Below are positions 13,281 through 64,000 of a DNA stretch of 64,000 nucleotides, in pieces. The stretch lies in the NCBI GenBank assembly GCA_947034885.2, contig OX344749.2:23141501-23205500 (forward strand), written 5' to 3'. Positions within the stretch are counted from its first letter, which is position 1, and each line of letters starts with the position of its first letter. This stretch comes from Thuidium tamariscinum (lineage: Eukaryota > Streptophyta > Bryopsida > Hypnales > Thuidiaceae). The notes below the pieces were generated by a model. That model worked only from the letters and a program-made list of their open reading frames with translations, was not told where the DNA came from and ran no database searches. A program made the position numbers and the translations under genes.

Positions 13281-16200
13281 ATGGAATCGTGGGCGAACGA
13301 TATTGTGAAGAAGGCCTTCAAGCAAGGGTGAGCTTCTCCGCTCCGTCTATTCTGAGTGTGTCAGTTATGAAGTCCGCGCACTACCTCTCGATTTTTTTAT
13401 TTGTGAGTCGAGTTGGGTTGTGTCACTTTTGTGAGGATGTTGTGCTGTGTAAGGCTGTCTGTGGATTCGTGTGGGCCACCTATGGTTCAGATGGGTGTTT
13501 CACTTCGTTATGCTTTGAGTTCTCCTCTTATTTGTGGCTTTAGGTATCCATCAGTGGGTCGCTGAAGCGGGGATTTCAGATTTAGGGTTCAGATCTGTAT
13601 TTCGTCTTATCTGGAGCCAGTGTCCATGCGTGTGTTCCCTTGTCTGTGTCCGATTGTTTAGATGGCTTTTGTGTTTGTTTCGTCTGTGTGTAGCAGGTCT
13701 TCCGGCACGATCGATCAGCTGAAGACCATAGGCAAAGAGCTGGCCATGGGCAGTCAAGGTTCCTCGAAAGACTTCATAGATCTTGTGAAGGCCATAGGAG
13801 AATCGAAGTCGAAGGCGGAGGAGGAGAGAATCGTGTTGGCGGAGATTGAATTGCTGAAGAAACGGATCATGGAGCCCGATGTCCCTCGCAAGAAAATGAA
13901 GGAGTATATAATTCGTCTGGTTTACGTGGAGATGCTGGGCCATGACGCGTCGTTCGGCTACATCTATGCCGTGAAGATGACTCATGATGACAATCTTTTG
14001 TGCAAGAAGAGTGGTTATCTGGCGACGACTCTGTTTCTGAACGAAGATCACGACCTGATTATCCTGATCGTGAACACGATCCAGAAGGATTTGAAGTCTG
14101 ATAATTTCCTTGTCGTGTCTGCTGCTCTGACGGCCGTGTGTAAGCTGATCAATGAGGAGACCATCCCTGCCGTGTTACCGCAAGTTGTGGATTTGTTGGG
14201 TCACCCGAAGGAGCACGTGCGGAAGAAGGCCGTGATGGCTTTGCACCGTTTTCACCAACGGTCTCCGAGTTCTGTGGCTCATCTGCTGACGAAGTTTCGA
14301 CAGGTGGGTGGGAAGGCCGATCCCTTGGAGTTGGTTTGATCTTCTTTCTGAAGCGTTTTGTATTGTTTCCGTGCGCGCTGGATGATTTTGTGGCTGGGTT
14401 TTCGTCGGCCGGTGGCTTAGAGCGTTCCCTTTCGTGTTGGTGCTGCAGATCCTGTGTGACAAGGACCCCAGTGTGATGAGTGCAGCTCTGTGTGCCCTGC
14501 TTGACTTGGTCTCCGCTGATGTGAAAGCATTCAAGCACCTGACCGCCAGTTTTGTGAGTATTCTGAAGCAAGTAGTCGAGCACCGGCTCCACAAGGCTTA
14601 TGACTACCATCGCACTCCAGCTCCTTTTATCCAGGTTCTGAGTGTGTCTCCACCTTTCTCCACTGAGGCGCTGTTTTCTTTCCACGTTTGTCGTGTCTCC
14701 CGGTTCTCCAGTGTTGGGTCCCATCGATTAGGGACTCGAACAGCGGTTTGTTTCCAGTGAATGCGTGTTGATGTGTCCATCTGGTTTGCCAGCTTGTGCG
14801 TGGTGTCTGAAGTGCATTGGTGTAGTTCATCGGAGTTCCTGAAGCTCCTTTGTCGGTTGGTTGCAGATCAAGATCTTGAAGATCTTGGCCTTGCTGGGGG
14901 AAGGCGACAGGGTGAGCAGTGAGAACATGTACAGTGTGTTGTTGGAGGTTCTGAAGCGAAGTGAGCCCGCTAAAAGTGAAGCTGTGTCCAATATCAGTAA
15001 TGCCATCCGTTACGAGTGCATCTGTACCATCACTGCCATTGTTGCGAATCCGAAGCTTCTCGATCTGGCTGCTGACATCACGTCTCGATTCCTGAAGGTG
15101 AGCTTGGCTTTGGTGGCCAGCATGTATTTGTAATGCCATTCGGTGGAATTTAGGTCCTTCTTCCATTGTCCGATTTTTTTTGGATGTGGGTATGTACAAA
15201 TTCGCTGCAAGGTATCGGACAGCTGGTTTTGTTCACTCTTGGGTCCCTCCCGCAGTTCAGTTTCAGGTTCGCTAGTTTAGTGTGTCAGTTTCTTTCTGCC
15301 CCCTTCTTGTGTCAGCAGGTGAGCAGTTGTCCGTTATCTTTTCATGACGTCTCCCCTTTCCGCAGTCGCCTGATCCCATAACTTGCATTGCTCTCCCGTG
15401 TTATTGAATATTCTCGTGGTGGTCAGAGTGACAATCACAACTTCAAGTATATGGGCATCGATGCCCTGGGACGCGTGATTCAAATCAATCCCGACTTCGC
15501 TGAGCAACACCAGTTGGCTGTCATCGATTGTCTTGAGGTATGGTCGCCAACCTTCTGTTTTTCAGAGTGGGATCGAAGGTGATGATGACACGTGTACGAA
15601 ACCTTGGGGTCTGAACAGCATTTTTGGAACTTGTGGTTTCCTGCGTGAGGAGTCCTCTTCTTGATTCTGTGGAAACTTGATGGCGAATTTGATTTCTGTT
15701 GCGTATTTCTAGGACCAAGATGACACCTTGAAGCGGAAGACCCTGGATCTTTTGTATAAGATGACCAAGTCCAGCAATGTGGAAGTGATAGTGGAGCGCA
15801 TGATCGGTTATATGCGGACTTTGAGCGATGCCCATAGCAAGACCGAGATTGCTGGTCGCATCATTGAGCTGGCGGAGAGATTTGCACCCAGTAATCACTG
15901 GTTCATCCAGGTCTGAGCTCTGAATGCCTGGCCTTTGTGCGCCTCTGCATGTTTGCTTCGGACCCGAGGATGTGATTTCGTGTGTGAATTTTTCATTTGG
16001 TGTGCGAGTTTTCAGTTTCGCCCAGTTGGTTGTGACTAACTGTCGGTTTGGAACGTTGTTTCGTATGCTCCGCACCAGACCATGAACCAGGTTTTTGAGC
16101 TGGCCGGCGATCTGGTGCCTGCCAAAGTTGCCCATGACCTGATGCGTCTTCTTGCGAAGGGCGCGGGTGAGGACGACGTCGAAGCGGATTCTCTTCTCCG

Positions 16201-19200
16201 CTCTTCTGCTGTACATTTCTTTGCCCTTTGTGTGGTAGCTTGAAGTTGACTTCTTTGGCAATGAGTCGCTTTCGGTGTGCTGAGAGCCGCTTGTTTTCAG
16301 TTGTGTAATTCGGTGAAGTCCACGTGTCGATGGCTTTGTCCTCCAGAAGTCTCGTGAGTGAGTGAATGGTTTTCTTGTGTCGAGTGGTGTTTGAGTAATC
16401 TGGAGGTGTGCCTTCTATAAGGCGGGTCTGTATTTCAGCTCCATGATTAGATTTTCCGTTTCCCTTTTCTCTTTGCTTTTGTGACTATTAGTGTGCTTTG
16501 TCGTTCTCTCCATGTTGTTTTACTCGAGAGTACCCTGTATCTCCACGTTTTGTTCCCGGCGTGTATTCCTTGTTTCTGGCTTCTGGTGTGTTTTCTTGGA
16601 ATGTTGTAGAGTAATGCATCCCCTTCTGCAGCCATGGTGTTTCGTAGGCACCGAAGTCTATCTTGGCTCCTCGTTTTGATTTGCGACATCGTTTGTCCAT
16701 GCAGGTGGAGTCTTATTTGCAATTGCTGAAGGAACCGAAACTGCCATCGATCCTTCTTCAGGTTGAATAAGCTTCCTTCTTCTCCTCGTAGTGTCTGTCC
16801 AAGAGCTAATCCAAAGCAGAAGTTGCGATTTTCTTTTCTTTCCCATGAAGCCTGGTTCCAAGTGTTGGATATGCGTGATGTCATCGGAGCGAGAACTGTG
16901 AGAATACATTTCTAGTTGTAAAATTGTAACAAAAGTGTCGTCGTCTTGTGGGGACACTGAACAACTGTTTGAAACCCTATTTATTTATTTATGCGTGGAT
17001 TCGGACACTAGAACATCCATGGACATTGTGTCTACGGTCTACTGTTGTGCCTTGTGCACTCCTTGGATACACAGAGCAATCCGTTGGAGTCTCGTCCCGC
17101 AACCTCCAGTGTGGGCAAGAAGCCTGAATGCTTTGTCAGGACGTATGTGTGCGCAAGTGGTTGTATCTGATTTTGTTTGTCGTTTTTTACCCGTCAGGTT
17201 GTGTGCTGGGTATTAGGAGAGTATGGAACTGCAGACGGTACTCATGCTGCTGACGCCATCATCGGCAAGCTCTGTGACGTTGCTGAAGCTCATCTTGGCG
17301 ACACCGTTGTCCAGGTGATTGCGCCTGTATTGTGCTTTTTGCACCTTCCTTTCACCTTGGATGCATCTTTGCTGAGGGTGGGTCTTGTTGTGAAGTGGAG
17401 AGTTCGTAGGATGCATGGCCGACTTGTGAATGCACCCCCCTTAATGACCGAGTCGTTATTGAAGTGCTATTTGTTGCATATCTGGTCAGGGATATGCAAT
17501 CACAGCCATCACCAAGATCTGCGCTTTTGAGATCAGTGCAGGCAGACCAGTTCATCTAATCCCTGAGGTGCGTTGTCCATCTTTCTGCTGCGTGTGTTCC
17601 TGTGATTGGTGAACGTATCACTGTCCAGTTTTAGGTGGTAAAGGTTGGTGGTGCCCGATGTGCATCACGTTTTTTCGTTTTCAGCGCATGTCGTCGTCCG
17701 CCCTGTGTCTATTTTTTGTGTGAAGTGTCCCACTTGTGTGGCGTCCTTTGGCAATGGCTTTGCTTCTTTATCTGTTGTGTATGCTATGACGACAGCTTAT
17801 CGTCTGCTACACCTGAGAATTCCTGTGAGTGTACTTTTATGGAAACCACTTACTTGTGTGGGTCTTTTGAGGCCATTTTCATGGCTTCGGAGCAGTCCAT
17901 CTTGTGCTTCGCAACCGTTGTGACTCGATGCCAATCCTTGTTAAGCGTTCTGATTCGATTCTGACTATGGTTTTTCCTTGTTTGCATTGCAGTGTCTTTC
18001 ATTCGTGGATGGTCTGTTATCATCCCACTCCACCGACCTGCAACAACGAGCTTACGAGTTGCAAGTTTTCTTGGGACTTGATCCAGACCTTGTGCAGAAG
18101 GTGCTGCCTGTGAATGGTTGTGGCGAAGAAATCGAGGTATGCACATGGGTTTCTGTTTGGCCGTTGAGAGACCCAGGGTTTCCGGTTTGGAGTTGCCGAA
18201 TTCCATCTATCGTATGTTTGAACGTCTCATTCCAGTGGGTCTGAGTAAGATTTCACCGGAGTTTGTGAAGATTTTAGACTTCCTTGCTCAAAGGAAACGA
18301 ACAAAATGAACAAAAGAAAGATGGCATATGAATTGCTCGAACCTGTGAATCCCTTCTTGGTTTTTCAGCGGTCGACTGTTTTCTGAAAGATTGGGATAGC
18401 ATGATGCGACATCTATTGTTTGGACTTGTCGCAACTTCGAAATTCGGATCAGCTCCCTCTCCCTTATGTCATTTAGTATATTTACAATTGAAGGCTGTGG
18501 TTGTGAATTGCGATGTCTTTGATCCTCGCTTGTTGCTGTTGATTGCTAAGTGCTTGATATCTTTTTTGCTTTTTCGGCTTGTTAAGTCCCCCTTTTCCAG
18601 AATTTTCCTTTTTTGCTCGAGTCCTATGGCGTTTCCTCATTGCTTTGGTTGTGTCCTTGTGATAGTGCGTCTAGTGTGTGTGTTACGGTGCGTCTTGTTT
18701 CGGCGCCTGAATATGGAGCGTTCCCGTTTTGCTGTTCGAATCTGCAGATTGACAAGGAGTTACCCTTTCTCCAAGGGTTTGTGGACTCCGCTCTGGCTAA
18801 TGGGGCCCGTCCGTACTTCCACGAGAACGGGCGCCTGGAGATGAGCAGTGGCATGAGTTCTTTCGCCAGTACGAGCCAGGGTCAGCAGGAGCCCTCCCAC
18901 GCGCTGCGTTTCGAAGCTTACGACACCCCGACTGTCCCCGTTCCCGCCTCTGCTCCTCCTTCCCTTCTTCCCGACTTCCAGGAGGCGAAGCCGGAATCGC
19001 CTCGAAGTCTCCGAAACCAGTTAGCAGCGGACAGTTCCCAGGTGGATTTACTTGGCCCTGACGTTTCGAGGCTTCGATTGGATGGAGTGCAGAGGAAATG
19101 GGGCCGTCCGTCCGCTTCGTCTCAGCCTGCTCCTGTGGCCAGCCCAAGTTTCGAGGAAGAGGGTGGAAGAGGTGGTAGCGTTGGTAGTGGTGTCTCTGAG

Positions 19201-20399
19201 AGAGCCGGCTCTACCGGGGAAAGTACTTCCGCAGGTCGGTTTCCTATTCCTTGATGTGAACACCGTTTTTCGGTTGCCATGTTTGGATCTTTGTAGTCCT
19301 TTTTTCGATGCGGTTTAGGGTTTTTGGAGAACCTGGCCCTCGTAGTTGGTGTCGGAGGCTCGGTCTTGTTCCAATTTGCAGGATTGACATTCGCAAGTGC
19401 CTTCGATGGTGTTGTAAATGGCCGGGCCTGGAGTCAGTAGGTTTTCTAGAACCCCTGTGAGGTGCGGGAATTTTCGTGTCGAGGATTGAGTGACATCTGT
19501 GCATCATGAGTGATTTCTAGCCAAGCCTGATCCGTGTTCTAGACGTTGCTCCTCGTAGTTGTCCATTTCTGTTCTGTCGTTTTCCGTTGGTGTGCGTGTC
19601 TTACTGTATGTAGTCGGATTACTTCATCCGGTGTGATTGATGGATTCTCGATGTGTGTAACTGTTGTTGAGCAGCGCCGCTGCATGTTCCACGCCACGTG
19701 GAGAGAAAGCCGGCGCAACCAGAGATCCCCGCCGAGAAACAGCGATTGGCAGCCTCGTTGTTCGGAGGTTCTTCCGTCCAGAAACCTGTGAATGGAGTGA
19801 AGGGATCCAAGCCAGCATCTGCCCATCTTCGAGGTGGTGAGAAGAGCACCTCTTCCAGGCCCGCGAAAGACCCGACTCCAGCTCCAGCTCGGCCGAAGCC
19901 AGCCTCCGCTCCTCTTATGGATCTGATGGACTTGAGTGAGGGCGACTCCTTCTCGACTCCCGTTGCCAAGGCTTCGTACGATCCATTCCAAGAGTTGGAA
20001 GGTTTACTCGATGGACCTTCCTCGACAGGCGCCGCGTTGTCGACACCAGCAGCAGCCCCTGCCACGAGTAGTCTCGATTTCATGTCTTTGTATGAGAGCA
20101 GTGCTGGCCCCGTGTCCTCCCCAATCGATTCTGACTTCATGTCTTTAGGGCTTACCAGCAGTTCTGGGATGGAGTCCGTGAATGCTAGGCCGCAGGCAGG
20201 CCTCCTGGACTTGAATGAGTTTCCAGCCAGCAGCCCCCTGGCCGGGCTGGAGGTTTCGAGTTCCTCCGCTGCACCTGTTTTGTCGGACAAGAAGGGAGCT
20301 TCCTTGCAAGACTCTCTGCAGAAGGACGCTACCACCCGGCAAGTTGGCGTGACTCCCGCCGGGACCAATCCTGCCCTTTTCCAGGACCTGTTTGGATAG
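13281..20399 (+). CDS. AP4E: AP-4 adaptor complex subunit epsilon, copy 1, 13 exons, 1039 aa
   Basis: Role (family): large subunit of the AP-4 adaptor, which sorts cargo at the trans-Golgi network with AP4B, AP4M and AP4S. Exons read: 13281-13327, 13697-14303, 14449-14634, 14867-15097, 15427-15537, 15713-15910, 16079-16210, 16705-16761, 17198-17314, 17490-17567, 17993-18136, 18748-19234, 19675-20399; all phases agree and total 3120 nt. Seen: [17 protein letters not shown] near the N terminus; the adaptin trunk ([54 protein letters not shown]) to about residue 636; a Ser/Pro-rich hinge with LRFEAYD and [33 protein letters not shown]; and the C terminus [18 protein letters not shown]. The order matches Arabidopsis AP4E (about 938 aa), with a longer hinge. 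The first exon ([15 protein letters not shown]) is less conserved and chosen by phase and Kozak context. No break seen. Confidence 0.95.
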
Positions 20400-20621
20400 T
20401 GGGTCGTGTTTGTTGTGTTCGTTTAGCACCCGACCGCGGTCCAGATGTCCAGAAATGATATTAGTTGCGCAATTGATCGTCTTCCCCAGCTTTTGGGGAC
20501 TTGTCGAGAGCTGAGAGTAGGTTTCTGTTGTATAGGAAGTAGCTGAAGATTATCGCCGGCGGAGTCTCGAGTATCTCTACATGTGATTTATTTTGCATGC
20601 AGAATAATTTGTTTGACATTT
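13338..20621 (+). repeat. Arm 1 of large inverted duplication
   Basis: The reverse complement of 56727-64000 matches this stretch almost base for base, through exons, introns and about 220 bp beyond the AP4E stop codon. Similarity ends abruptly at 20621 (GTTTGACATTT). The left limit is unknown, because position 13338 pairs with the last base of the window. Differences are scattered substitutions and small intron indels, for example in the 5' intron near 13.59 kb and near 17.67 kb. Confidence 0.95.
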
Positions 20622-22096
20622 ATGATAGCATATTCTTGCCATGATATGACGTCGAAAGAAATCTGAGTATAGGCCGAGTGATTTGGGCAATAACTTCCCG
20701 AACCTTTTTAATCCAGTTCCTTTTAGAATGACTGAGCAGGATTACTTTGGGAAGCAAGCGAAGTGTACAGGGTCTGTAATGCTCTGAGGAAGGATTTTAG
20801 GATGGTTTTGACTATAGAGTTGTAAATGTTTTGGTTGGATATTGTCAGTAGTTAAGTGGGGCTTCTAGGGTCTCTCGGAATCTACTTTTGATAGAGATCA
20901 GTCGTTAATCAAATCAGAAAGTCTTGAAAAATATTTCTTTCATTCATCCTCTTACAATTAATAATGATATCTACTTATGCATTCAAAACCTATGCATCCA
21001 AATCGCAAATGATTTGGACATGGTATCCAACAATCATAGCTATAACATTGTTCACCAGTAGCACTGCTCCCTTAAACTTTGAAAAGCATTTCATGAGGTG
21101 GTTTATTCTAGTGGCCTGCACTAAAGGTATTTCCATTTTGCAGGTGTGGGTGTGTGGGGTGGGGGTGGGGGTGGGCGGGTGGGCGGGTGGGGGCTTCGCG
21201 GGCAATATTCTTATAGGGGGTTTCAATGGTGTTTTGGGGCCCATTTTCTCTTTTTAGAAATAATATGGCTAATAATGGGATCTTTGGGATTCGTGCACGA
21301 AAATTTGACATCTCTGATCACAAAAATAAGTTTCCGTTTCTTCCTAACAAGCTGTAATACATGGTTCGCTTTCCATTGATCTGAATTCAGAAAGTTGCTT
21401 GGTGCAAAAATGGTCTGTAAACAACAACAGTATGTGTCCAAGGAACAGTTACAATTAATCAAACAAACCATCATTTGTCAGCCGGGGTCTTTTGCAATGA
21501 AAATTCGGGCACTGAATTGACCGAGTCTAATTCAGGCTCACTGTTTGCACCACATAATTATTCTGACTAATCATGGAACTAGCTTGCAGTAAAGCTGGAC
21601 AAAGTCCGGGTACATATCGAATCGTACCACATAAGAAAGGCATTAACTTTCAATCAGCTCAAGCTGGCACAACATGCGTGAGCATAACCCAACCACCTTA
21701 ACGACAATGTGCTGTCGGCATTCCTCTGAAGTTGACAGTCTTTTATGACATTAAATAATTAGTAATAGTATACGGAACATGCTGCGTAGGAAAATCTAGT
21801 CCCAGAACCACAACCATGCCCATCCAAACAAACAGCCGTGTCTGACCGACCCAAGGTGCAAAATCGTTGGTCCCAGTTGTACGTACGTATGTTTCAGTGT
21901 AGACTTTCTGTAATTTAATACCAATTAAGAAAACAACACACATTGAACACTAGATGATCAGGTCAGCGCACAATTTGCTATATAAAATAACTTGTGCAGC
22001 TTGTCCAACTGGTCTCGTATTTGCCTGGAGCTGGATCCCTCAGCCATGGAGCTTCCATTTCGTAATGAATTGTTGCCACCGCCGTCGTGCAGGTGG
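20400..22096. other. Intergenic between convergent AP4E and LAZY
   Basis: Holds the AP4E 3' flank (inside the duplication to 20621) and then single-copy sequence up to the LAZY stop codon. The two genes point at each other, with 1.7 kb between stop codons. No further gene was seen. A G-rich tract lies at 21143-21203. Confidence 0.6.
21143..21203 (+). repeat. G-rich tract, G-quadruplex-capable
   Basis: Runs of three or more G separated by one to three bases (GGGGTGGGGGTGGGGGTGGG and onward through GGGCGGGTGGGCGGG). This satisfies the usual four-run quadruplex pattern several times over. It lies between two convergent 3' ends. A functional role is not shown. Confidence 0.6.
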
Positions 22097-22116
22097 TCAC
22101 ATTTCGAGGACGACAA
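22097..22116 (-). other. 20-nt terminal coding micro-exon of the LAZY gene
   Basis: The acceptor AACGTACAG precedes TTGTCGTCCTCGAAATGTGA. With the single T left over from exon 3 (GAG T|GTAAGC) this reads F-V-V-L-E-M-stop, the end of the CCL motif. The preceding intron is about 820 bp (22936-22117). Exon choice rests on phase, splice sites and the match to the family signature. Confidence 0.85.
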
Positions 22117-25092
22117 CTGTACGTTGCAACACAATCAGAATTAGTTCACAATAGTTTATAATGCCAACTGAAGTCTGGTGTTCAAAGTCATTCTTCCACT
22201 GACTCATTACTCACAATCCTGCTCAAAGTCCTCATTCTAAAATATAGATCAATCTTTAAGACAGTATATCAGATACATGAAGTAATCTATCTCATTCAAA
22301 GGTTAGTCATGATCGATATCAACCAAGAAGTACATTGATATGCCAGACATTAATCTCTCATCGCAAGCCCTTAAAGAAACCAAGAAGTGTAGATGTATGC
22401 ACTCTATCTCTCTCCTTGCAACAAAAACCTGCAGATATCTATGTTATGTCGAATAATCCTCACGTGTCTCTGGGTTCTTGAGTTCACAGAATCAGTCACT
22501 ATGGAGCCCCTCTCATCCAGTTCACGTGTATGCTTGCAAGAAGGACCAGGCACGTGACAGTGGAACCTTGTTATGAAAAATAACATGCGTAGCCACAACC
22601 CACATGAGTGGCTGCAAGGGATGTAAGATATTTTCATATCGAGGTACGATGTGCTTTCAAGTTTGTGCCGGGAACATTCTCACTCAGTACGTAGTTGGTC
22701 CTGACCTTGTTCAATCATGCACAATCGATCAAGGGTACAGAAAAAAGGACATTTTAACGGTACTAAAGCAACCCCACGTTCGCGAAAACCACACGCCTCT
22801 CCTAATCTAAAGCGATTGCTATCTGGGTGTACAGTAATGGGCTGTATTGAGGTTATGAAAGCTCCATGGATCGAGTGAACGCAAACAATAGAAACACGTG
22901 ATTTCTTGAATACTAGAAATGGTGAGCGACGCTTACACTCGGAGTCGGTTCGAATCCACTTCCCGTTCTGAGCACAAGCCCAAGTCCCTGTCCCGAAGCT
23001 GTGAACTCTCTTCCGCTCAGCACCCGAGCCCGCATACTTGGAGCACTCCAACGGTTTCGATGGAAGTTCTTTACGAAACACCCGTCCTTCCAGATCCACA
23101 TTTGCAATGCACGGCACGCCAGAAACCTAGGACAAGTACAACACTCGTTTTTAATAAACCCGCACAGAACAATGAAGAGTTTCAGACTTTTTGACGAACT
23201 CGTAGAAAATATTATGTGAAGAAAAACTCCAACTTTATTACAAACCACCTTGCGTCCATGCATTAAGTATCTGTTGCAATTGCTGATTCCTCAACTTTCT
23301 TGGACTAATTGCACTCGTGAACGAATTCTGCGCCTCATACTTCTTCTCGTGTGTAGGCCCTATCCTATCATTAGCTATATATATGCCTAAAACAGAACTG
23401 GCATATCCCTCGATTTCTCGGATTTCGGAGGTACCCAAACATCACAACGTGGAAAAGAAAATCTTGCTCTTGATTAAGTCCTCACAGTCGATTCCTGCAG
23501 GGACCATATGAAGGTCTCCTAATCATATATACACGAACCAGCATAAATAGCATAGGCAATAAGTTAGTGTCCGAATCAACGTCATCTCTTCACCTGTGGC
23601 GAATTTCTCGCCGCTGGAGCAGAAGTCTCCGGCTCTGGGGTGACTTCAGCTGGGGGATACCATAGCCGTCCTATTGAACTGAATCCTTTCGCTCTGTCTG
23701 GCTTCTTCGGGTTCCCTGTTGCTCGTAATTGAAGAACATCACACTGCTGTTCTTCTTTGCTGCCGACCCGCTTCTCCGGCCGCACTTTCTTCCGCTTCTC
23801 CTTCTCCCCGAGTTTCTGAGTTCGCCGTGATCTGGACCCGAACAGCCCGCAGCCCCCAGGCATGTGGAATTCTCCATCGGACTGGTCATGATCTGGAGAG
23901 TTCGTGATCGAAGTCCTGGTGCCAGAAGGGTTGGGCTTGAGTGTATGAACCGGCCGTGGTTTCGTAGTTTTGACGCTGGGGTGCAAGGTGGACAATGCAT
24001 CGTTTTCAGAAAACACAGGAAGCTCCTTCCTCTGGCAGCAACGTTGCATTTCTTTTTCGTCGTCAGAGCTTCGGAGGGCCACTTGGATGCTGGAGACGGA
24101 ACTCTGATGATCGACTGGAAGTGTCGGTGTTGCTGGTAGTGTTGTTGGTATTGCTGGTACTGCTGGTGTTGCTGAAGGAGGTTTGAGTGGGTTGATGTCG
24201 AGACCTAAGCGCACTCCTGCGAGCTGGTCCAAGGCGAAGGTGCCGATGGCCAGCAAGCCTTCTTGCTCGTGACTGAACACGAAGCGGATGGTCTCTTGCA
24301 ACCGGTCTTCCCACGCCACTCCCGATCCGGCCATCTCTTTCGCCAGGGCTTCGGAATCGTGGTCCTGGGTAGGCCGTGGGAGGGATGAGGACCCACCTTG
24401 CTCCCGGCCGATGACGGTGTCGTCTCGTGATCCCCAACTTCCTATGGGCCGGATACTCATGGGAGAAGCAGCATCTGATGGGTCGATCGATCATGAACAC
24501 GGACAAGCGTTTCGATTCAAACGAGTGTACTTCGCTATGAATGTGTGTGCAAAAGAATGAGAATGCGGCCAGTAATGACTAGCTTCTTCTCTTATATGCA
24601 ACTGTTACTAGCTCGGGGGGAACCAATCGGGAAAGTGGTTAATTACGATCATGTTAGACGCACTTAAACGAAATTCTAGATCTCTAGGCCAGCTATTCGC
24701 ATTTTGCTACTGACATGTACATGCAGGATTGCTTTCGGAATCCGAGAGACATTGTGAATTCTACATGATCATGGCACTCGAAATCTTTTTTGGGAAGGAA
24801 AATTTTATGAGCTAGTAACTCATGATTAACCAGGTAATCTAAGTACGATTTTCGTGGTAGTTCGATGAGATTGTTTGCAATTAAAATTCTAGAGAACTAG
24901 CGATCGACTCATGTGAAGGATTCCAATCATATATGAAACGTACGGCAATGTTGGTTTCACGAAGCGTTAAAACAAAACTTCCAATCGGACAGCATATATA
25001 CCTGATGTCTTGACTTCCTCATGAAGCCTTGGCTGAATTGACGAAGGTTCCCTCTTCCTTCCCCACCCGAAAAACTGCACCCAACCATCCAT
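22097..25092 (-). CDS. LAZY1-like: LAZY/IGT-family gravitropism protein, 4 coding exons, 393 aa
   Basis: Role (family): LAZY proteins act downstream of statoliths, bind RLD proteins through their C-terminal CCL motif and polarise PIN auxin transporters. Exons read: 25092-25002, 24474-23594, 23126-22937, 22116-22097; phases join to 394 codons. Seen: conserved region I near the start (MDGWVQFFGWGRKREPS; seed plants have MKLLGWMxxK); the IGT motif EGLLAIGTFALDQ at about 102-114; a Pro/Thr-rich stretch; a basic patch near EKEKRKKVRPEKR; and the CCL KWIRTDSE|FVVLEM, split by the last intron so that its end lies on a 20-nt exon. Seed-plant members end roughly KWIKTDSEYLVLEL. If exon 2 is not spliced at CAG|GTGAAG, the frame stops within a few codons and loses the CCL. 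No damage seen. Family assignment is firm; which LAZY subgroup is not. Confidence 0.88.
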
Positions 25093-31869: not shown

Positions 31870-32008
31870 GGGGTGTTTCACACTATGGCTGTCCAAGTCG
31901 AGAGGCCATGGTTTTCTCAAATTTGATTGGTGAAAATTATGGTTTCTCAAATCTGATTGGTGGAATCGACGGCCTCTCGACGTGGATGGTCATAGTGTGA
32001 AACGCCCG
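31870..32008. mobile_element. PIF/Harbinger-like MITE, 139 bp
   Basis: Seen: the ends GTGTTTCACACTATG and CATAGTGTGAAACGC are inverted, and similarity continues for about 37 bp per arm (to GAGAGGCC and GGCCTCTC). The 3-bp direct repeat TTA flanks it (31867-31869, 32009-32011). TTA duplication and G-rich ends suggest a Tourist-type element. Most of the element can fold into a hairpin; the centre also carries the tandem words TTTCTCAAATTTGATTGGTG and TTTCTCAAATCTGATTGGTG. Confidence 0.75.
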
Positions 32009-50485: not shown

Positions 50486-50489
50486 TACT

Positions 50490-52850: not shown

Positions 52851-53610
52851 TCTAAACCATAAACAAAAATTAGAAAAGGATTCTGGAACTCAAGGTCCTA
52901 GGCCCCCTTCTTACATGAGTCACATCCTAAGCACATCCTAAACCAAATCAAAATCAAAACCCTAAAGGACGCATAAGGCATGCAACATGCACAACAATTG
53001 AAAGCAAATGAAGGCAAGTATATATTAGAGAGCATGTAACTTACTAGAAGTTGTAGTATTAAACCGTTGCAAGATTGTCAAATTCTTCGATTTCATTACA
53101 AAATTGAAGCGCACTATAAAGCTAGAAGCTCAACCCTAAATTGGTGGTGAAAGCAATCAAGAAATCTTGAATTAGCATGACGAACCAATTTAGCTAGAAG
53201 TAGATTTGACTTGAATCCTAAACCCTAAGCACAAATTGGAGAACAATTCCAAAACCTCTTATCCTTATCCACCCTTCTCATCCCCTTAGCATTGCATATA
53301 TGAAATCAAAACCAAAAACCTAAAAGATGCCTTAAACCCACAACATGCATAGGAATGCAGCTTGAATCCTAGATTGAAAGCAAATCAATGATAGGCATTG
53401 GAAATATGTAACTTACTAGAAGCAGTAAATTTAGTGCACCCTAAACCTTGAAGCTCACAAGGACATTGGTGGTAGCTAGGTGCAATTACAAAATCTTCAA
53501 TTACCACTATCGTCATGATGAATTAACAACTCGTCAAGAAATTTGACTTGAACCTTGAATCCTAAGCATGAATTACAAAAAAATTACAGAACTCCACATG
53601 ATTCTGGTGC
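52851..53610 (+). repeat. Diverged tandem repeat, units of about 340-367 bp
   Basis: Units begin near 52851, 53218 and 53558 (the third is partial). Shared order: CTAA.C.TAA.CA.AAATT, AATCAAAACC..AAA.CCTAAA, AACATGCA, GATTGAAAGCAAAT-like, ATGTAACTTACTAGAAG, and later GACTTGAA. Units differ widely, so the array is old. Non-coding. Confidence 0.65.
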
Positions 53611-55765
53611 GGCCCATAAGAAATCATTGTGCGTCTATAAACTTAGAAGCAAGCAATTTGAAATTTGCAATATGTGCTAGAGAATCCATTGAGAATACCC
53701 TAAACCTTGACAGCTCTATAGAACTACCATGCCATCATGCCAACTCATTTCCTACCTCCCTAAAGGTGCCTAATTTAAATTTAGACAACATATTGAATTA
53801 ACCTACAACCTTGCTACTAAAGCTATTAAATATTAAATTGAATCTACTAAGCACTTATAGGGAAATTAAAAATTTGGCATCTTATTTTTTTTCTATTGCT
53901 AAAAAGAATGGGGAATTTTTCCCACCTTATTTTATATATAAACTCAACCAAGACATATTACCAATGCTATTGTACATCTACAAAAAATATAAATTTTTAC
54001 TCCTATGAATTAAATTGACCCTATTTTTTTTATCTCACAACACTTTCTACTGCATCAAGAGCTTACACCTCGAGTAGCATGGTCATTAATGGTTGAATTA
54101 ATTTAGAGGATTGCCCCCTCCATATTTCAAATCTTTATATATAATAAATTATTGGATAAGAAGTGTACAATTTGTGCTTGGACTTGCCTTTAGATTCCTT
54201 TTACCACAATAAGTAAGCTATTTTGCTTACAATTGTTATAATAACTTAACGAGTGATGAAATCTCTTTAAATTTGCACACTAATTAATTGATAATTAACT
54301 TGTTAGTATTGAAGATAGTCAATTGCACAAGTAGTATAAACAAGCTTGTTTCTTTTTTTTGTTGTAACAAAGTTTAAATCACAATAATAGAAATATTTTT
54401 AAGTGAATGTCAAGAATTGTCTTGCAAAGGAAATCTAATTTTTGGCATTTGTAATGTTTGCAAGTTATTTTTTGATCCTTATTCCTTTGACCTTGAATCT
54501 TGTAGTCACTAGAATAATGCTCGTCTACAATCTAAATTGAATGGTCTGTACAATATGATATTCTACACTTTGTAGTTTATGTATATTATAGCAAATTGCA
54601 AGGTGACAAGGTAGGGGCATGTATCCACCCCTGCCAAGTTGTAGTGCACCACATATGCAATCTGCATTCATTATAGACAATAACAATAACAAAAACAATC
54701 ATAAATAAGCATGCCATCACAAAAAATTTGAAAATGCAACATAAAACATGGGTTTCTTATAATGGGGTCCAAATAACTCCATTGTACCTCTTTCCAATCT
54801 CAATCTTCCATCAAAATGAAATTTATTTTATCCTTTCCAAGGTCAAGATAATCTTCTTAGTGTGAATATATTATATTTATACAACTTCATTGTTATTTCA
54901 AGTAAATAACAAACAAGAGGTTTTTCTTTAATTGAATTATTCTTATTGTTTGCATGGTACCATACTAACTAAACAACTCTAAATTGGCATTGTATCAAAC
55001 AAGCCTTGGAAAATGAAATGCTCCATATAGGTACCATTATGCATGGTAGTGCCATAGTGTGGAATCTTTTTCATATTAGTCATTGCTATAACTTGATATC
55101 ATGAAACAATATGTAGTTCTATTACACTATCAAAATTTAGGAAAAAAGGAGGTGCTAATTTAATCCACTTAAAGGGAAAATAGGATTGATTGACAACTCA
55201 AATGACAAGTTTCATTTAATTCATGTTTCTTCTTGAATAAAAATTGTTGATAGAAAATAAATTTCTTTACATATAAAACTTGTAAATTAATTATGATTTA
55301 GTGAAAAACAACCCTACAATCCAAACTTTTAAATCTAAACAATACATTCTTCATCCTATTTTTGTGTCATCTAAAATACAATACCTTTATAAATGATAAA
55401 TTATAGTAAAGAATCACCAAATAATTATCTTCATTCTAAATAGATACCACTATAGTATTTGTAATTATTTTGTTTATTGTTGCTTTAATGATTTAGGGAA
55501 TCTACACTACTCAATGTTTGAGTTTTTCATTCCACTATGAATAGTATTACAATTATCTATATAATGTGGTCTTTTCTATTTATGGTGTTTGCAATATATG
55601 GATTTGAAAACTTAGTGAAAAGAACAATCTACAATAATTGATGATAAAATCTCTATTTAGTGTGGCCCCATGTTTTTAGGAGAAGTACTAGTTGAGAAAC
55701 AACACTAAATAGAATGAAGAGTGTTGATGTGGTTCTATGTCTTTACCATGGACTTTGAGAAGAGA
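53611..55765. other. AT-rich intergenic, no gene seen
   Basis: Short AT-driven open frames only; no RNA gene or transposon ends recognised. Confidence 0.5.
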
Positions 55766-55985
55766 AAAACCTACAAGTACACTAATTTTGTAAATAATAA
55801 GGGAGAATTTGGAAGATGTCTAAAATTTTAAAAATTGTTCAACTATTTTTGAAAATCTGAAATTTTGTTCTTTGATGCTAATTCTAAATACCCATGAATT
55901 ATCCTTGAAGAAAAATAGAAAAAGGAACACATTTATACATGAATAGAAAGATTCAAATCCAAATTTAGGAGTGTCCAAAAATGAA
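55766..55985 (-). mobile_element. Partial TIR element with GTAGGTC end, copy 3
   Basis: Starts ACCTACAAGTACAC..ATTTTGTAAATAA and shares TTTGGAAGATGTC with the reverse of 50201-50485, and AAAAAGGAACACA and ATGAATAGAAAG with 9397-9674. The opposite end is missing or decayed. Confidence 0.5.
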
Positions 55986-56726
55986 GAGGAGAAAAGTGCC
56001 CCAAGCCAAGAAATCTGAATTGAGTTGCTGTACTCTTTGAATCCTAAAATTAAATTATTTTAGCACTAATGTGTTGAATTAGACTTGAACGTACCCTTGT
56101 CTTTTTATCCATGGTACAAACAATCAGAGAAAATTGTGGAAAATTTTAACGTACTTCTTGTGAGATTATAAGTTTATAACGGTCAAGCGTCTCCTGAGGA
56201 GACGAGGTCCGATTTAGACGGATTTAGACGGTGGGGCACAGGGGTGAAAACAAAACCCCACTCCTCTTCTTCAGTCCAGACTGTAATAAATCATGTCTTG
56301 CTAGACAGAATGTTCCCATTCCAGCCAACTCGGGACAAGTTGGGTGGACTCCCTGGCTGGAACATGACATGATTTCCAGTACACTGATTCATCATTCTTC
56401 TGAGGGCACAAAATTACTTCATCCGTCAACCCAAGCAATGTAATGATCCTTCAACTTGCACTAAAATAAAGCTACAGGTAGAAAATCTTCTTGTGCATCC
56501 CTCTGAGAGGGGATCTTTCAGTAATGGAGTTTGTAGGTGGGGCCAATTTCAAGAACATTCTCCAGAAAATAGTGTTGGAAATAGACAGTTGTAAATAACC
56601 GTTCCTTGCACCTCTGACATGCAAAAGCCTCTCTTAGTGCATAGTCCCAACACCTTGCACAAACAACTCCCATCACACTCGCATAAAAGACAAATCAGTC
56701 TGCTCACGACAAGGCTCCGGGATCAA
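55986..56726. other. Single-copy flank next to AP4E copy 2
   Basis: Composition rises near 56.18 kb. The sequence is not the continuation of the copy-1 flank, so it marks the outside of the duplication. A 70-codon open frame (56231-56443) is unrecognised. Confidence 0.5.
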
Positions 56727-59700
56727 AAATGTCAAACAAATTATTCTCCATGCAAAATAAATCACATGCAGAGATTCTCGAGACTCCGCCGGCGATAATC
56801 TTCAACTACTTCCTATACAACAGAAACCTACTCTCAGCTCTCGATAAGCCCCAAAGGCCTGGGAAGACAATCAATTGCGCAACTAATATCATTTCTGGGC
56901 ATCTGGACCGCGGTCGGGTGCTAAACGAACACAACAAACACGACCCACTATCCAAACAGGTCCTGGAAAAGGGCAGGATTGGTCCCGGCGGGAGTCACGC
57001 CAACTTGCCGGGTGGTAGCGTCCTTCTGCAGAGAGTCTTGCAAGGAAGCTCCCTTCCTGTCCGACAAAACAGGCGCAGCGGAGGAACTCGAAACCTCCAG
57101 CCCGGCCAGGGGGCTGCTGGCTGGAAACTCATTCAAGTCCAGGAGGCCTGCCTGCGGCCTAGCATTCACGGACTCCATCCCAGAACTGCTGGTAAGCCCT
57201 AAAGACATGAAGTCAGAATCGATTGGGGAGGAGACAGGGCCGGCACTGCTCTCATACAAAGACATGAAATCGAGACTACTCGTGGCAGGGGCTGCTGCTG
57301 GCGTCGACAACGCGGCGCCTGTCAAGGAAGGTCCATCGAGTAAACCTTCCAACTCTTGGAATGGATCGTACGAAGCCTTGGCAACGGGAGTCGAGGAGTC
57401 ACCCTCACTCAAGTCCATCAGATCCATAAGAGGAGCGGAGGCTGGCTTCGGCCGAGCTGGAGCTGGAGTCGGGTCTTTCGCGGGCCTAGAGGAAGCGCTC
57501 TTCTCACCACCTCGAAGATGGGCTGATGCTGGCTTGGATCCCTTCACTCCATTCACAGGCTTCTGGACGGAAGAACCTCCGAACAACGAAGCTGCCAATC
57601 GCTGTTTCTCGGCGGGGATCTCTGGTTGCGCCGGCTTTCTCTCCACGTGGCGTGGAACATGCAGCGGCGCTGCTCAACAACAGTTACACACATCGAGAAC
57701 CCATCAATCACACCGGATGAAGTAATCCGACTACATACTGTAAGACACGCACACCAACGGAAAACCACAGAACAGAAAATGGACAACTACGAGGAGCAAC
57801 GTCTAGAACACGGATCACGCTTGGCTAGAAATCACTCATGATGCACATATGTCACTCAATCCTCGACACGAAAATTCCCGCACCTCACAGGGGTTCTAGA
57901 AAACCTACTGACTCCAGGCCCGGCCATTTACAACACCATCGAAGGCACTTGCGAATGTCAATCCTGCAAATTGGAACAAGACCGAGCCTCCGACACCAAC
58001 TACGAGGGCCAGGTTCTCCAAAAACCCTAAACCGCATCGAAAAAAGGACTACAAAGATCCAAACATGGCACCCGAAAAACGGTGTTCACATCAAGGAATA
58101 GGAAACCGACCTGCGGAAGTACTTTCCCCGGTAGAGCCGGCTCTCTCAGAGACACCACTACCAACGCTACCACCTCTTCCACCCTCTTCCTCGAAACTTG
58201 GGCTGGCCACAGGAGCAGGCTGAGACGAAGCGGACGGACGGCCCCATTTCCTCTGCACTCCATCCAATCGAAGCCTCGAAACGTCAGGGCCAAGTAAATC
58301 CACCTGGGAACTGTCCGCTGCTAACTGGTTTCGGAGACTTCGAGGCGATTCCGGCTTCGCCTCCTGGAAGTCGGGAAGAAGGGAGGGAGGAGCAGAGGCG
58401 GGAACGGGGACTGTCGGGGTTTCGTAAGCTTCGAAACGCAGCGCGTGGGAGGGCTCCTGCTGACCCTGGCTCGTACTGGCGAAAGAACTCATGCCACTGC
58501 TCATCTCCAGGCGCTCGTTCTCGTGGAAGTACGGACGGGCCCCATTAGCCAGAGCGGAGTCCACAAACCCTTGGAGAAAGGGTAACTCCTTGTCAATCTG
58601 CAGATTCGAACAGCAAAACGGGAACGCTCCATATTCAGGCGCCGAAACAAGACGCACCGTAACACACACACTAGACGGCACTATCACAAGGACACAGCCA
58701 AAGCAATGAGGAAACGACATAGGACTCGAGCAAATAAAGAAAATTCTGGAAAAGGGGGACTTAACAAGTCGAAAAAGAAAAAAAGATATCGAGCACTTAG
58801 CAATCAACAGCAACAAACGAGGATCAAAGACATCGCAATTCACAACCACAGCCTTCAATTGTAAATATACTAAATGACATAAGGGAGAGGGAGCTGATCC
58901 GAATTTCGAAGTTGCGACAAGTCCAAACAATAGATGTCGCATCATGCTATCCCAATCCTTCAGAAAACAGTCGACCGCTGAAAAACCAAGAAGGGACTAA
59001 CAGGTTCGAGCAATTCATATGCCATCTTTCTTTTGTTCATTTCGTTCGTTTCCTTTGACCAAAGAAGCCTAAAATCTTCACAAGTTCCGGTGAAATCTTA
59101 CTCAGACCCACTGGAATGAGACGTTCAAACATACGATAGATGGAATTCGGCTACTCCAAACCGGAAACCCTGGGTCTCTCAACGGCCAAACAGAAACCCA
59201 TGTGCATACCTCGATTTCTTCGCCACAACCATTCACAGGCAGCACCTTCTGCACAAGGTCTGGATCAAGTCCCAAGAAAACTTGCAACTCGTAAGCTCGT
59301 TGTTGCAGGTCGGTGGAGTGGGATGATAACAGACTATCCACGAATGAAAGACACTGCAATGCAAACAAGGAAAAACCATAGTCAGAATCGAATCAGAACG
59401 CTTAACAAGGATTGGCATCGAGTCACAACGGTTGCGAAGCACAAGATGGACTGCTCCGAAGCCATGAAAATGGCCTCAAAAGACCCACACAAGACAGTTT
59501 CCATAAAAGTACACACTCACAGGAATTCTCAGGTGTAGCAGACGATAAGCTGTCGTCATAGCATACACAACAGATAAAGAAGCAGAGCCATTGCCAAAGG
59601 ACGCCACACAAGTGGGACACTTCACACAAAAAATAGACACAGGGCGGACCACAAAAAACGTCATGCACATCGGGCACCACCAACCTTTACCACCTAAAAC

Positions 59701-62700
59701 TGGACAGTGATACGTTCACCAATCACAGGAACACACGCAGCAGAAAGATGGACAACGCACCTCAGGGATTAGATGAACTGATCTGCCTGCACCGATCTCA
59801 AAAGCGCAGATCTTGGTGATGGCTGTGATTGCATATCCCTGACCAGATATGCAACAAATAGCACTTCAATAACGACTCGGTCACTACGGGGGGGGCAATC
59901 ACAAGTCGGCCATGCATCCTACGAACTCTCCACTTCACAACAAGACCCACCCGCAGCAAAGATGCATCCAAAGTGAAAGAAAGGTGCACAAAGCACAATA
60001 CAGGCGCAATCACCTGGACAACGGTGTCGCCAAGATGAGCTTCAGCAACGTCACAGAGCTTGCCGATGATGGCGTCAGCGGAATGAGTACCGTCTGCAGT
60101 TCCATACTCTCCTAATACCCAGCACACAACCTGACGGGTGCAAAACGACAAACAAAATCAGATACAACCACTTGCGCACACATACGTCCTGACAAAGCAT
60201 TCAGGCTTCTTGCCCACACTGGAGGTTGCGGGACGAAACTCCAACGGATTGCTCTGTGTATCCAAGGAGTGCACAAGGCACAACAGTAGACCGTAGAAAC
60301 AATGTCCATGGATGTTCTAGTGTCCGAATCCACGCATAAATAAATAAATAGGGTTTCAAACAGCTGTTCAGTGTCCCCACAAAACGACGACACTTTTGTT
60401 ACAATCTCACAACTAGAAATGTATTCTCACAGTTCTCGCTCCGCTGACATCACGCATATCCAACACTTGGAACCAGGCTTCATGGGAAAGAAAAGAAAAT
60501 CGCAACTTCTGCCTTAGATTAGCTCTTGGACAGACACTACGAGGAGAAGAAGGAAGCTTATTCAACCTGAAGAAGGATCGATGGCAGTTTCGGTTCCTTC
60601 AACATTTGCAAATAAGACTCCACCTGCATGGGCAAACGATGTCGCAAATCAAAACGAGGAGCCAAGATAGACTTCGGTGCCTCCGAAACACAATGGCTGC
60701 AGAAGGGGATGCATTACTCTACAGTATTCCAAGAAAACACACCAGAAGCCAGAAACAAGGAATACACGCCGGGAACAAAACGTGGAGATACAGGGTACTC
60801 TCGAGTAAAACAACATGGAGAGAACGACAAAGCACACTAATAGTCACAAAAGCAAAGAGAAAAGGGAAACGGAAAATCTAATCATGGAGCTGAAATACAG
60901 ACCCGCCTTATAGAAGGCACACCTCCAGATTACTCAAACACCACTCGACACAAGAAAACCATTCACTCACCAGAGAGACTTCTGGGGGACAAAGCCATCG
61001 ACACGTGGACTTCACCGACTTACACAACTGAAAACAAGTGGCTCTCAGCACACCGAAAGCGACTCATTGCCAAAGAAGTCAACTTCAAGCTACCACACAA
61101 AGGGCAAAGAAATGTACAGCAGAAGAGCGGAGAAGAGAATCCGCTTCGACGTCGTCCTCACCCGCGCCCTTCGCAAGAAGACGCATCAGGTCATGGGCAA
61201 CTTTGGCAGGCACCAGATCGCCGGCCAGCTCAAAAACCTGGTTCATGGTCTGGTGCGGAGCATACGAAACAACGGTCCAAACCAACAGTTAGTCACAACC
61301 AACTCGGCGAAACTGAAAACTCGCACACCAAATGAAAAATTCACACACGAAATCCCATCCTCGGGTTCGAAGCAAACATGCAGAGGCGCACAAAGGCCAG
61401 GCATTCAGAGCTCAGACCTGGATGAACCAGTGATTACTGGGTGCAAATCTCTCCGCCAGCTCAATGATGCGACCAGCAATCTCGGTCTTGCTATGGGCAT
61501 CGCTCAAAGTTCGCATATAACCGATCATGCGCTCCACTATCACTTCCACATTGCTGGACTTGGTCATCTTATACAAAAGATCCAGGGTCTTCCGCTTCAA
61601 GGTGTCATCTTGGTCCTAGAAATACGCAACAGAAATCAAATTCGCCATCAAGTTTCCACAGAATCAAGAAGAGGACTCCTCACGCAGGAAACCACAAGTT
61701 CCAAAATGCTGTTCAAACCCCAAGGTTTCGTACACGTGGCATCATCACCTTCGATCCAACTCGGAAAAATAGAAGGTTGGCGACCATACCTCAAGACAAT
61801 CGATGACAGCCAACTGGTGTTGCTCAGCGAAGTCGGGATTGATTTGAATCACGCGTCCCAGGGCATCGATGCCCATATACTTGAAGTTGTGATTGTCACT
61901 CTGACCACCACGAGAATATTCAATAACACGGGAGAGCAATGCAAGTTATGGGATCAGGCGACTGCGGAAAGGGGAGACGTCATGAAAAGATAACGGACAA
62001 CTGCTCACCTGCTGACACAAGAAGGGGGCAGAAAGAAACTGACACACTAAACTAGCGAACCTGAAACTGAACTGCGGGAGGGACCCAAGAGTGAACAAAA
62101 CCAGCTGTCCGATACCTTGCAGCGAATTTGTACATACCCACATCCAAAAAAAATCGGACAATGGAAGAAGGACCTAAATTCCACCGAATGGCATTACAAA
62201 TACATGCTGGCCACCAAAGCCAAGCTCACCTTCAGGAATCGAGACGTGATGTCAGCAGCCAGATCGAGAAGCTTCGGATTCGCAACAATGGCAGTGATGG
62301 TACAGATGCACTCGTAACGGATGGCATTACTGATATTGGACACAGCTTCACTTTTAGCGGGCTCACTTCGCTTCAGAACCTCCAACAACACACTGTACAT
62401 GTTCTCACTGCTCACCCTGTCGCCTTCCCCCAGCAAGGCCAAGATCTTCAAGATCTTGATCTGCAACCAACCGACAAAGGAGCTTCAGGAACTCCGATGA
62501 ACTACACCAATGCACTTCAGACACCACGCACAAGCTGGCAAACCAGATGGACACATCAACACGCATTCACTGGAAACAAACCGCTGTTCGAGTCCCTAAT
62601 CGATGGGACCCAACACTGGAGAACCGGGAGACACGACAAACGTGGAAGGAAAACAGCGCCTCAGTGGAGAAAGGTGGAGACACACTCAGAACCTGGATAA

Positions 62701-64000
62701 AAGGAGCTGGAGTGCGATGGTAGTCATAAGCCTTGTGGAGCCGGTGCTCGACTACTTGCTTCAGAATACTCACAAAACTGGCGGTCAGGTGCTTGAATGC
62801 TTTCACATCAGCGGAGACCAAGTCAAGCAGGGCACACAGAGCTGCACTCATCACACTGGGGTCCTTGTCACACAGGATCTGCAGCACCAACACGAAAGGG
62901 AACGCTCTAAGTCACCGGCCGACGAAAACACAGCCACAAAATCATCCAGCGCGCACGGAAACAATACAAAACGCTTCAGAAAGGAGATCAAACCAACTCC
63001 AAGGGATCGGCCTTCCCACCCACCTGTCGAAACTTCGTCAGCAGATGAGCCACAGAACTCGGAGACCGTTGGTGAAAACGGTGCAAAGCCATCACGGCCT
63101 TCTTCCGCACGTGCTCCTTCGGGTGACCCAACAAATCCACAACTTGCGGTAACACGGCAGGGATGGTCTCCTCATTGATCAGCTTACACACGGCCGTCAG
63201 AGCAGCAGACACGACAAGGAAATTATCAGACTTCAAATCCTTCTGGATCGTGTTCACGATCAGGATAATCAGGTCGTGATCTTCGTTCAGAAACAGAGTC
63301 GTCGCCAGATAACCACTCTTCTTGCACAAAAGATTGTCATCATGGGTCATCTTCACGGCATAGATGTAGCCGAACGACGCGTCATGGCCCAGCATCTCCA
63401 CGTAAACCAGACGAATTATATACTCCTTCATTTTCTTGCGAGGGACGTCGGGCTCCATGATCCGTTTCTTCAGCAATTCAATCTCCGCCAACACGATTCT
63501 CTCCTCCTCCGCCTTCGACTTCGCTTCTCCTATGGCCTTCACAAGATCTATGAAGTCTTTCGAGGAACCTTGACTGCCCATGGCCAGCTCTTTGCCTATG
63601 GTCTTCAGCTGATCGATCGTGCCGGAAGACCTGCTACACACAGACGAAACAAACACAAAAGCCATCTAAACACTCGGACACAGACAAGGGAGCACACGCA
63701 TGGACACGGGCTGCAGATAAGGCGCTTGGAAAAGGAAATACAGATCTGAACCCTAAATCTGAAATCCCCACTTCAGCGACCCACTGATGGATACCTAAAG
63801 TCACAAATAAGAAGAGAATTCAAAGCATAACGAAGTGAAACACCCATCTGAACCACAGGTGGCCCACACGAATCCACAGACAGCCTTACACAGCACAATA
63901 TCCTCACAGAAGTGACAAAACCCAACTCGACTAAGAAATTAAAAAACCGAGAGGTAGTGCGCGGACTTCATAACTGACACACTCAGAATAGACGGAGCGG
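56727..64000 (-). repeat. Arm 2 of large inverted duplication
   Basis: Reverse-complement match to 13338-20621, 7274 bp inside the window and continuing past its end. It ends abruptly at 56727, where GTTTGACATTT is followed by TTGATC instead of ATGATA in arm 1. Intron indels against arm 1 include a gap of about 16 bp near 59.65 kb and extra bases near 63.72 kb. Confidence 0.95.
56948..63630 (-). CDS. AP4E: AP-4 adaptor complex subunit epsilon, copy 2 (exons 2-13; exon 1 outside window)
   Basis: Same gene as copy 1, inverted. Exons read: 63630-63024, 62878-62693, 62460-62230, 61900-61790, 61615-61418, 61249-61118, 60623-60567, 60130-60014, 59838-59761, 59353-59210, 58597-58111, 57669-56948. 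Every exon has the same length as in copy 1 except the last, which is 3 nt shorter and loses one Phe (GDSFSTP becomes GDSSTP). All GT and AG sites persist and no stop interrupts the frame. Substitutions I read against copy 1 include GES to GEA in exon 2, QLL to QML, THAA to THSA, EISAGRP to [10 protein letters not shown] to VDS, HENG to HENE and EAYD to EAYE; exons 3-7 look identical in protein. The 47-nt first exon, homologous to 13281-13327, should lie just past 64000. Likely functional, inferred from intactness. Confidence 0.92.

What the first reader, a model, noticed from the sequence alone, without database searches (positions are those of the whole stretch)
13338..64000. Two intact, inverted, convergent copies of AP4E around a 36-kb spacer
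Arm 1 (13338-20621) and arm 2 (56727-64000) are near-identical in reverse orientation, and every AP4E exon in view keeps frame and splice sites in both. Adaptor subunits are normally held at matched dosage with their partners, so a kept duplicate of one large subunit is notable. A palindrome with a 36-kb spacer could also allow inversion or gene conversion between the arms.
Basis: seen in the sequence. Interest (0 to 1): 0.75.

Follow-up and report, generated by a model that had tools for sequence, protein, structure and literature searches.

The report
Inverted duplicate of adaptor gene AP4E
A plant genome, probably a moss, carries two complete, slightly different copies of a vesicle-adaptor gene facing each other 36 kb apart; the duplication looks real, but face-to-face gene copies are ordinary in this genome.

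Summary
The arms are 11980-20626 (+) and 56722-65377 (-; the last 1.4 kb lies past the window): 8693 alignment columns, 96.5% identical, 36.1-kb spacer. Each arm holds a complete 13-exon AP4E model of 1039 or 1038 aa, every intron GT-AG, best matched by solved AP-4 epsilon (459 bits; AP-1 gamma 200). No third AP4E locus was found in the 363-Mb assembly. dN is 0.0046 and dS 0.028, so both copies look constrained. Divergence, orientation and unlike flanks argue against a haplotype misjoin. Divergence is patchy: 8.0% upstream, 2.3% in introns, and an 877-bp identical tract that 1 of 2000 permutations reaches. Arm-to-arm gene conversion on an older duplication fits best. The case is not exceptional here: an AP-1/2-type beta-adaptin forms a near-identical inverted pair on another chromosome, and 21 of 46 neighbouring same-family pairs in three control families are inverted. 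Candidates for the other AP-4 subunits each appeared once, two of them tentatively named. Dosage, expression and inversion were not testable. One oddity: the leader of the neighbouring INTS8 gene is homologous to the AP4E leader.

The parts
11980..20626 (+). Arm A of the inverted duplication (8.65 kb)
   Evidence: blastn self-comparison of window plus flanks, 96.5% identity over 8693 columns; end alignments
56722..64000 (-). Arm B, in-window part; the arm continues to position 65377, i.e. 1377 bases past the window end (L004)
13281..20399 (+). AP4E copy A, 13 coding exons: 13281-13327, 13697-14303, 14449-14634, 14867-15097, 15427-15537, 15713-15910, 16079-16210, 16705-16761, 17198-17314, 17490-17567, 17993-18136, 18748-19234, 19675-20399; 1039 aa
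   Evidence: hand-built exon model and splice sites; Pfam Adaptin_N E=1.2e-81; PDB AP-4 epsilon 9u9i_E 459 bits against 200 for AP-1 gamma
56948..64000 (-). AP4E copy B, exons 2-13 in the window (exon 1 at 64057-64011 lies past the window end); 1038 aa
20627..56721 (.). Spacer, 36.1 kb: G+C-richer part to about 28 kb with a 302-codon frame at 23585-24490(-), then mostly A+T-rich DNA; no Pfam match at E<=0.01 in six frames of 20.7-30.7 kb (the rest was not scanned in six frames)
14680..15557 (.). 877-bp tract identical in both arms, the candidate gene-conversion tract (B: about 62647-61770)
   Evidence: permutation within coding and noncoding classes: 1 of 2000 reaches 877
12000..13280 (+). Upstream region and leader of copy A, the most diverged part of the arms (102 of 1279 sites differ); about 800 bp of it is homologous to the leader of INTS8 at 78216-79003, past the window

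Best explanation
This is a real, local, inverted segmental duplication that copied the whole AP4E gene with about 1.3 kb of upstream DNA. Shown: structure, extent, intact frames, divergence, and no third locus found. Inferred from substitution counts: both copies are under purifying selection. Inferred from patchiness: arm-to-arm gene conversion has since homogenised parts of the gene body, while the upstream regions kept diverging. Each copy presumably makes a normal AP-4 epsilon subunit from a somewhat different promoter. The duplication is one instance of a tendency of this genome to hold local gene copies in inverted orientation about as often as in direct orientation, not a feature special to AP-4.
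For: One 8693-column inverted match at 96.5% with non-matching flanks. Both genes intact, 13 exons. 11 nonsynonymous against 18 synonymous codon differences over N=2374 and S=737 sites, Fisher P=1.1e-5; a model with one neutral copy expects about 32 nonsynonymous changes, P=1.8e-5. Upstream 102 of 1279 sites against introns 92 of 3978, P=6e-18; introns 2-4 4 of 706 against introns 5-12 71 of 2903, P=6e-4; 877-bp identical tract. Other inverted pairs with identity from 83% to 100% in the stretches compared; 21 of 46 control-family neighbour pairs inverted.
Against: No related genome was available, so conversion is judged from patchiness alone, with no orthologue to show concerted change. Unequal mutation rate or unequal constraint along the arm could give part of the pattern. 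The neutral-copy test assumes independent evolution, and conversion would bias it. No RNA, read or population data. The orientation sample is small, gene rows were merged by eye, and the limit of 150 kb is not the published definition of tandem genes.
Confidence: 0.85

Rival explanations
1. Assembly artefact: two haplotypes, or a fold-back read, joined as an inverted repeat.
For: No reads could be inspected. Some other inverted pairs in this genome are 100% identical in the stretches compared, which is where an artefact would be hardest to exclude.
Against: Arms differ by 3.5% with indels. Counterpart flanks do not match (one 31-bp hit in 10 kb on the inner side, none on the outer side). One search does show short repeats (up to about 725 bp, 78-84%) on both sides of arm B, read here as dispersed repeats. 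If the sample is a haploid moss gametophyte (inferred), there is no second haplotype.
Confidence: 0.04
2. Inverted duplication with no gene conversion: the block pattern reflects uneven constraint and mutation only, and the duplication is simply as old as 2-3% divergence implies.
For: Coding exons are less diverged than noncoding sites, as constraint predicts (31 of 3117 coding against 204 of 5467 noncoding sites).
Against: Intron windows alone are over-dispersed (variance/mean 1.78, permutation P=0.0024); introns 2-4 are about four times less diverged than introns 5-12; upstream DNA diverges about 3.4 times more than introns.
Confidence: 0.25
3. The second copy is on its way to pseudogene, or one copy is already silent.
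For: Upstream regions differ by 8% with indels, so expression may differ. With the INTS8 leader as outgroup, copy A's leader carries more derived changes (21) than B's (11), 11 unresolved.
Against: No stop, frameshift or splice loss in 13 exons of either copy, and dN/dS about 0.17.
Confidence: 0.15

Closest known systems
PpHsp16.4a/b of the moss Physcomitrella (PMC4228350, passages seen)
   Same: Two copies of one gene in convergent (tail-to-tail) orientation, explained by the authors as recent tandem duplication and inversion
   Different: Genes 100% identical, stop codons 7.7 kb apart; AP4E is 36 kb apart, 3.5% diverged and a large multi-exon gene
Tail-to-tail Hsp70 pairs of Physcomitrella (PMC5028893, passages seen)
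   Same: Local moss gene pairs in convergent orientation
   Different: No arm comparison in the passages seen
Palindromes of the willow W chromosome (PMC7023750, passages seen) and mammalian X palindromes (PMC8981503, only the start of the abstract in a listing)
   Same: Gene-bearing inverted arms; in willow, homogenisation limited to parts of the arms
   Different: Those lie on sex chromosomes and the willow arms carry several gene families; whether contig C1 is an autosome is unknown, and AP4E is the only gene recognised in this arm
AP-4 epsilon, solved in 9u9i
   Same: Trunk aligns over residues 39-611, best match in the PDB copy
   Different: The protein here has a C-terminal part of roughly 400 residues with no Pfam match to an appendage domain

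Membership tests
AP-4 complex epsilon subunit | Adaptin_N trunk | tested here: met
   PF01602 E=1.2e-81, residues 78-615
AP-4 complex epsilon subunit | Closer to epsilon than to gamma, alpha or delta | tested here: met
   PDB bits: epsilon 459, gamma 200, alpha 161, delta 127
AP-4 complex epsilon subunit | C-terminal appendage (ear), as in animals (recalled) | tested here: inconclusive
   No appendage family among the 19 Pfam matches at E<=1. Whether land-plant epsilon proteins normally have one was not checked, and a weak appendage could be missed, so this does not decide membership
Gene-converting palindrome | Inverted arms with a unique spacer | tested here: met
Gene-converting palindrome | Arm-to-arm identity above 99% | tested here: not met
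   96.5% overall; above 99% only in parts, chiefly about 13.9-15.4 kb
Gene-converting palindrome | Concerted substitutions relative to an orthologue | not testable with these tools
   The genome tool states that no relatives of this genome are held
Gene-converting palindrome | Homogenised tracts beyond chance | tested here: met
   877-bp tract, 1 of 2000 permutations; intron over-dispersion P=0.0024

The most novel reading that the evidence does not exclude
In this presumably haploid-dominant plant, inverted gene pairs are kept as an internal backup: each arm serves as a repair template for the other, so important genes such as large adaptins survive in near-identical convergent pairs, while the promoters, lying outside the conversion tracts, are free to diverge. 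The AP4E and AP-1/2 beta palindromes would be two cases in one pathway, and the shared AP4E/INTS8 leader a relic of an older round at the same locus.
Probability: 0.1. Interest if true: 0.65.

Novelty: new member of a known kind. Interest (0 to 1): 0.3.

Why it matters
A retained duplicate of one AP-4 large subunit, with a gene body partly homogenised and upstream regions that diverge, is a clean place to measure gene conversion and expression divergence in a plant that is probably haploid for most of its life. [quoted passage not shown] That contrast could be measured genome-wide once annotation is at hand.

Tried and rejected
Haplotype misjoin: disfavoured on divergence, orientation and unlike flanks. 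A unique status for AP-4: rejected after finding the AP-1/2-type beta pair and control-family pairs. Inverted orientation as an excess over random: not supported, since 21 of 46 control pairs does not differ from one half (P=0.66); it exceeds only the published angiosperm fractions, which were defined differently. Pfam on the nearest 10 kb of the spacer in six frames gave nothing at E<=0.01; the other 26 kb of spacer was not scanned that way, only single open frames at 31996 and 47486 (no family and one sub-cut-off match). AP4M was named by recall from its sequence; for one 39-residue exon the PDB ranked AP-1 and AP-2 mu above AP-4 mu. The AP4B candidate at C9:715398 scores 129.5 bits to AP-2 beta and 118.3 to AP-4 beta, so its name is likely, not settled. 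Apparent G+C-free contig starts turned out to be masked letters and were dropped. Literature on inverted moss duplicates and on AP4E in moss. Searches returned no paper; one search returned six papers on other subjects; led to the moss papers cited; one search gave the palindrome papers. The report of opposite-strand tandem genes in the first Physcomitrella genome paper is recalled, not read.

Full report
OBSERVATION. The window lies at 23141501-23205500 of contig C1 of a 363-Mb assembly with 11 large contigs and 8 small ones. Self-comparison of the window with 10 kb to its left and 30 kb to its right (matches at E<=1e-20) gives one inverted match of 8693 columns, 11980-20626 against 65377-56722, 96.5% identical. 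The spacer is 36.1 kb.

GENE. A hand-built model with 13 coding exons gives 1039 aa (copy A, 13281-20399, +) and 1038 aa (copy B, 64057-56948, -). Pfam gives Adaptin_N. The best PDB match is AP-4 epsilon (9u9i_E, 459 bits), ahead of AP-1 gamma (200), AP-2 alpha (161) and AP-3 delta (127). A six-frame search of the genome with the exon-2 translation found these two loci and three distant adaptins at 26-29% identity.

CONSTRAINT. Of 1037 compared codons, 18 differ synonymously and 11 nonsynonymously; NG86 dN is 0.0046 and dS 0.0276. Over N=2374 and S=737 sites the two classes differ at P=1.1e-5. A model with one unconstrained copy (the other at dN/dS 0.1) predicts about 32 nonsynonymous changes, P(<=11)=1.8e-5. 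Two codons differ at more than one base and were counted once each.

PATCHINESS. Upstream DNA (12000-13280) differs at 102 of 1279 sites, intron 1 at 17 of 369, introns 2-4 at 4 of 706, introns 5-12 at 71 of 2903 (all introns 92 of 3978), and the stretch after the stop codon at 10 of 210. The longest identical run is 877 sites, 14680-15557; 1 of 2000 permutations that kept the coding and noncoding counts reached it. Intron windows of 100 sites are over-dispersed (variance/mean 1.78, P=0.0024). The split at intron 4/5 was chosen, so its P value is a description, not a planned test. Arm-to-arm gene conversion explains the pattern best, but without an orthologue it remains an inference. A faster-changing upstream region could explain part of it.

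NOT A MISJOIN. The arms are 3.5% apart and in opposite orientation. Ten kb of outer flank against outer flank gives no match at E<=1e-5, and inner against inner only one 31-bp match. Two haplotypes of one place would share flanks. One search also lists repeats between the two sides of arm B (up to about 725 bp, 78-84%), which I read as dispersed repeats. The sample is probably a haploid moss gametophyte: CCCTAAA repeats (133-195 copies in the first 3 kb) at 6 of the 11 large contigs (for four of the other five most of those letters are masked), 11 large contigs, and published 11-chromosome moss assemblies made from gametophytes (starts of abstracts in a listing). The species is not known.

PARTNERS AND PARALOGUES. 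One AP-4 sigma locus was seen (C10:8331090-8332196; PDB AP-4 sigma 116.9 bits against 97.9 for AP-1). The probable AP-4 beta (C9:715398) and AP-4 mu (C9:9475163) were each seen once, with names only partly settled. So gene counts are 2 epsilon to 1 each of the others, as far as this search goes; protein dosage is unknown.

CONTEXT. The Adaptin_N search gave 52 matches, read by eye as 15 genes. Two pairs lie within 150 kb, both convergent: AP4E and an AP-1/2-type beta subunit at C5:30437114 (+) and C5:30463610 (-) (PDB AP-1 beta 126.8 bits against 28 for AP-4 beta). The C5 copies are identical over 3799 compared bases. At the centre of that pair the arms are 99.8% identical over 2782 columns on either side of 2.4 kb with no full-length mirror match. 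The DNA between these fetched pieces was not seen, so a continuous palindrome is inferred. Three control families were then searched: AAA (2 inverted, 0 direct neighbour pairs within 150 kb), Ras (5 inverted, 5 direct) and peroxidase (14 inverted, 20 direct). Together 21 of 46 are inverted; with a 50-kb limit 16 of 33. The AAA search scored only 19 of 239 first-look candidates and the peroxidase search 150 of 177 with its list cut short, so these are samples. For the 7 inverted AAA and Ras pairs the two stretches were compared: identities 100, 97.9, 97.7, 97.6, 88.0, 84.8 and 82.8%. Among the 5 direct Ras neighbour pairs, C10:23.56/23.68 Mb was 100%, C7 a/b 98.1% and C6 a/b 85%; C7 b/c matched only in pieces at 76-88%, and the C10:11.7-Mb pair was not compared. 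The 34 peroxidase pairs were not compared by sequence. The sigma (8 genes) and mu (9 genes) searches gave no neighbour pairs. A ratio near one half does not differ from random orientation (P=0.66) but is well above the roughly 12-20% non-parallel arrays that follow from the Arabidopsis and rice figures quoted in PMC2547482 (P=8e-5 against 0.20). Definitions differ, so this is only indicative.

LITERATURE. Physcomitrella has 100% identical Hsp16.4 genes tail-to-tail, 7.7 kb apart (PMC4228350, passages), and tail-to-tail Hsp70 pairs (PMC5028893, passages). PMC3045890 (passages) states that tandemly arrayed Physcomitrella genes are highly similar, which suggests concerted evolution by gene conversion. 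Large palindromes with evidence of gene conversion were described on the willow W chromosome (PMC7023750, passages). The AP4E pair is thus a new member of a known kind.

A LOOSE END. The neighbourhood past arm B includes an INTS8 gene in one open frame of 1205 codons, stop to stop, with its first ATG at codon 7 (Pfam TPR_INTS8 E=1.3e-37; one locus found in the genome). About 800 bp of its leader aligns co-linearly, in the same sense, with the AP4E leader: 66% (A) and 68% (B) identity; for A the local score is 214 against a maximum of 31 in 200 shuffles that kept single-base composition only. Genome searches with the INTS8 leader or the AP4E upstream region did not find each other, so that search does not reach such divergence and further diverged copies elsewhere would be missed. 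The two genes share an old promoter or leader duplication; which gene had it first is not known. PMC3729371 (passages) discusses single-exon moss genes with multi-exon homologues, which may bear on the intronless INTS8.

One search was made while checking this report. It led me to drop a remark on G+C-free contig starts and to base the flank statement on a direct comparison. On rereading I narrowed the above-99% stretch to about 13.9-15.4 kb. The ear test was changed from not met to inconclusive.

Noticed in passing
Past the window: L005 4216-5003 (window scale 78216-79003) and window 12000-13280: The 5' leader of INTS8 is homologous (66-68%, about 800 bp, same sense) to the leaders of both AP4E copies.
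   Followed up: partly
G000 C5:30436900-30464050 (L060, L061, L062): Inverted convergent pair of an AP-1/2-type beta-adaptin, 100% identical over 3.8 kb compared, with a 2.4-kb asymmetric centre.
   Followed up: partly
L063-L077: Further inverted gene pairs (AAA and Ras families), identity 83-100% in the stretches compared, about 7-108 kb apart.
   Followed up: partly
Past the window: L005 5032-8646: INTS8 reads as one open frame of 1205 codons without introns; one locus was found in the genome.
   Followed up: partly
window 23585-24490 (-): A 302-codon frame in the spacer contains a GLLAIGTF motif that recalls LAZY-family proteins (recall only; no Pfam match).
   Followed up: no
window 4760-5362 (-): Frame with a weak match to an RNA methyltransferase domain (UPF0020, E=0.0079, below cut-off).
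   Followed up: no
Past the window: window scale 70612-74489 (L004, L005): Successive open frames read like a retrotransposon polyprotein (recall; no search made).
   Followed up: no
window 18748-20399 and its mirror: The C-terminal part of AP4E has no Pfam appendage match and contains LLDLNEF and LLDGP, which resemble clathrin-box motifs (recall).
   Followed up: no
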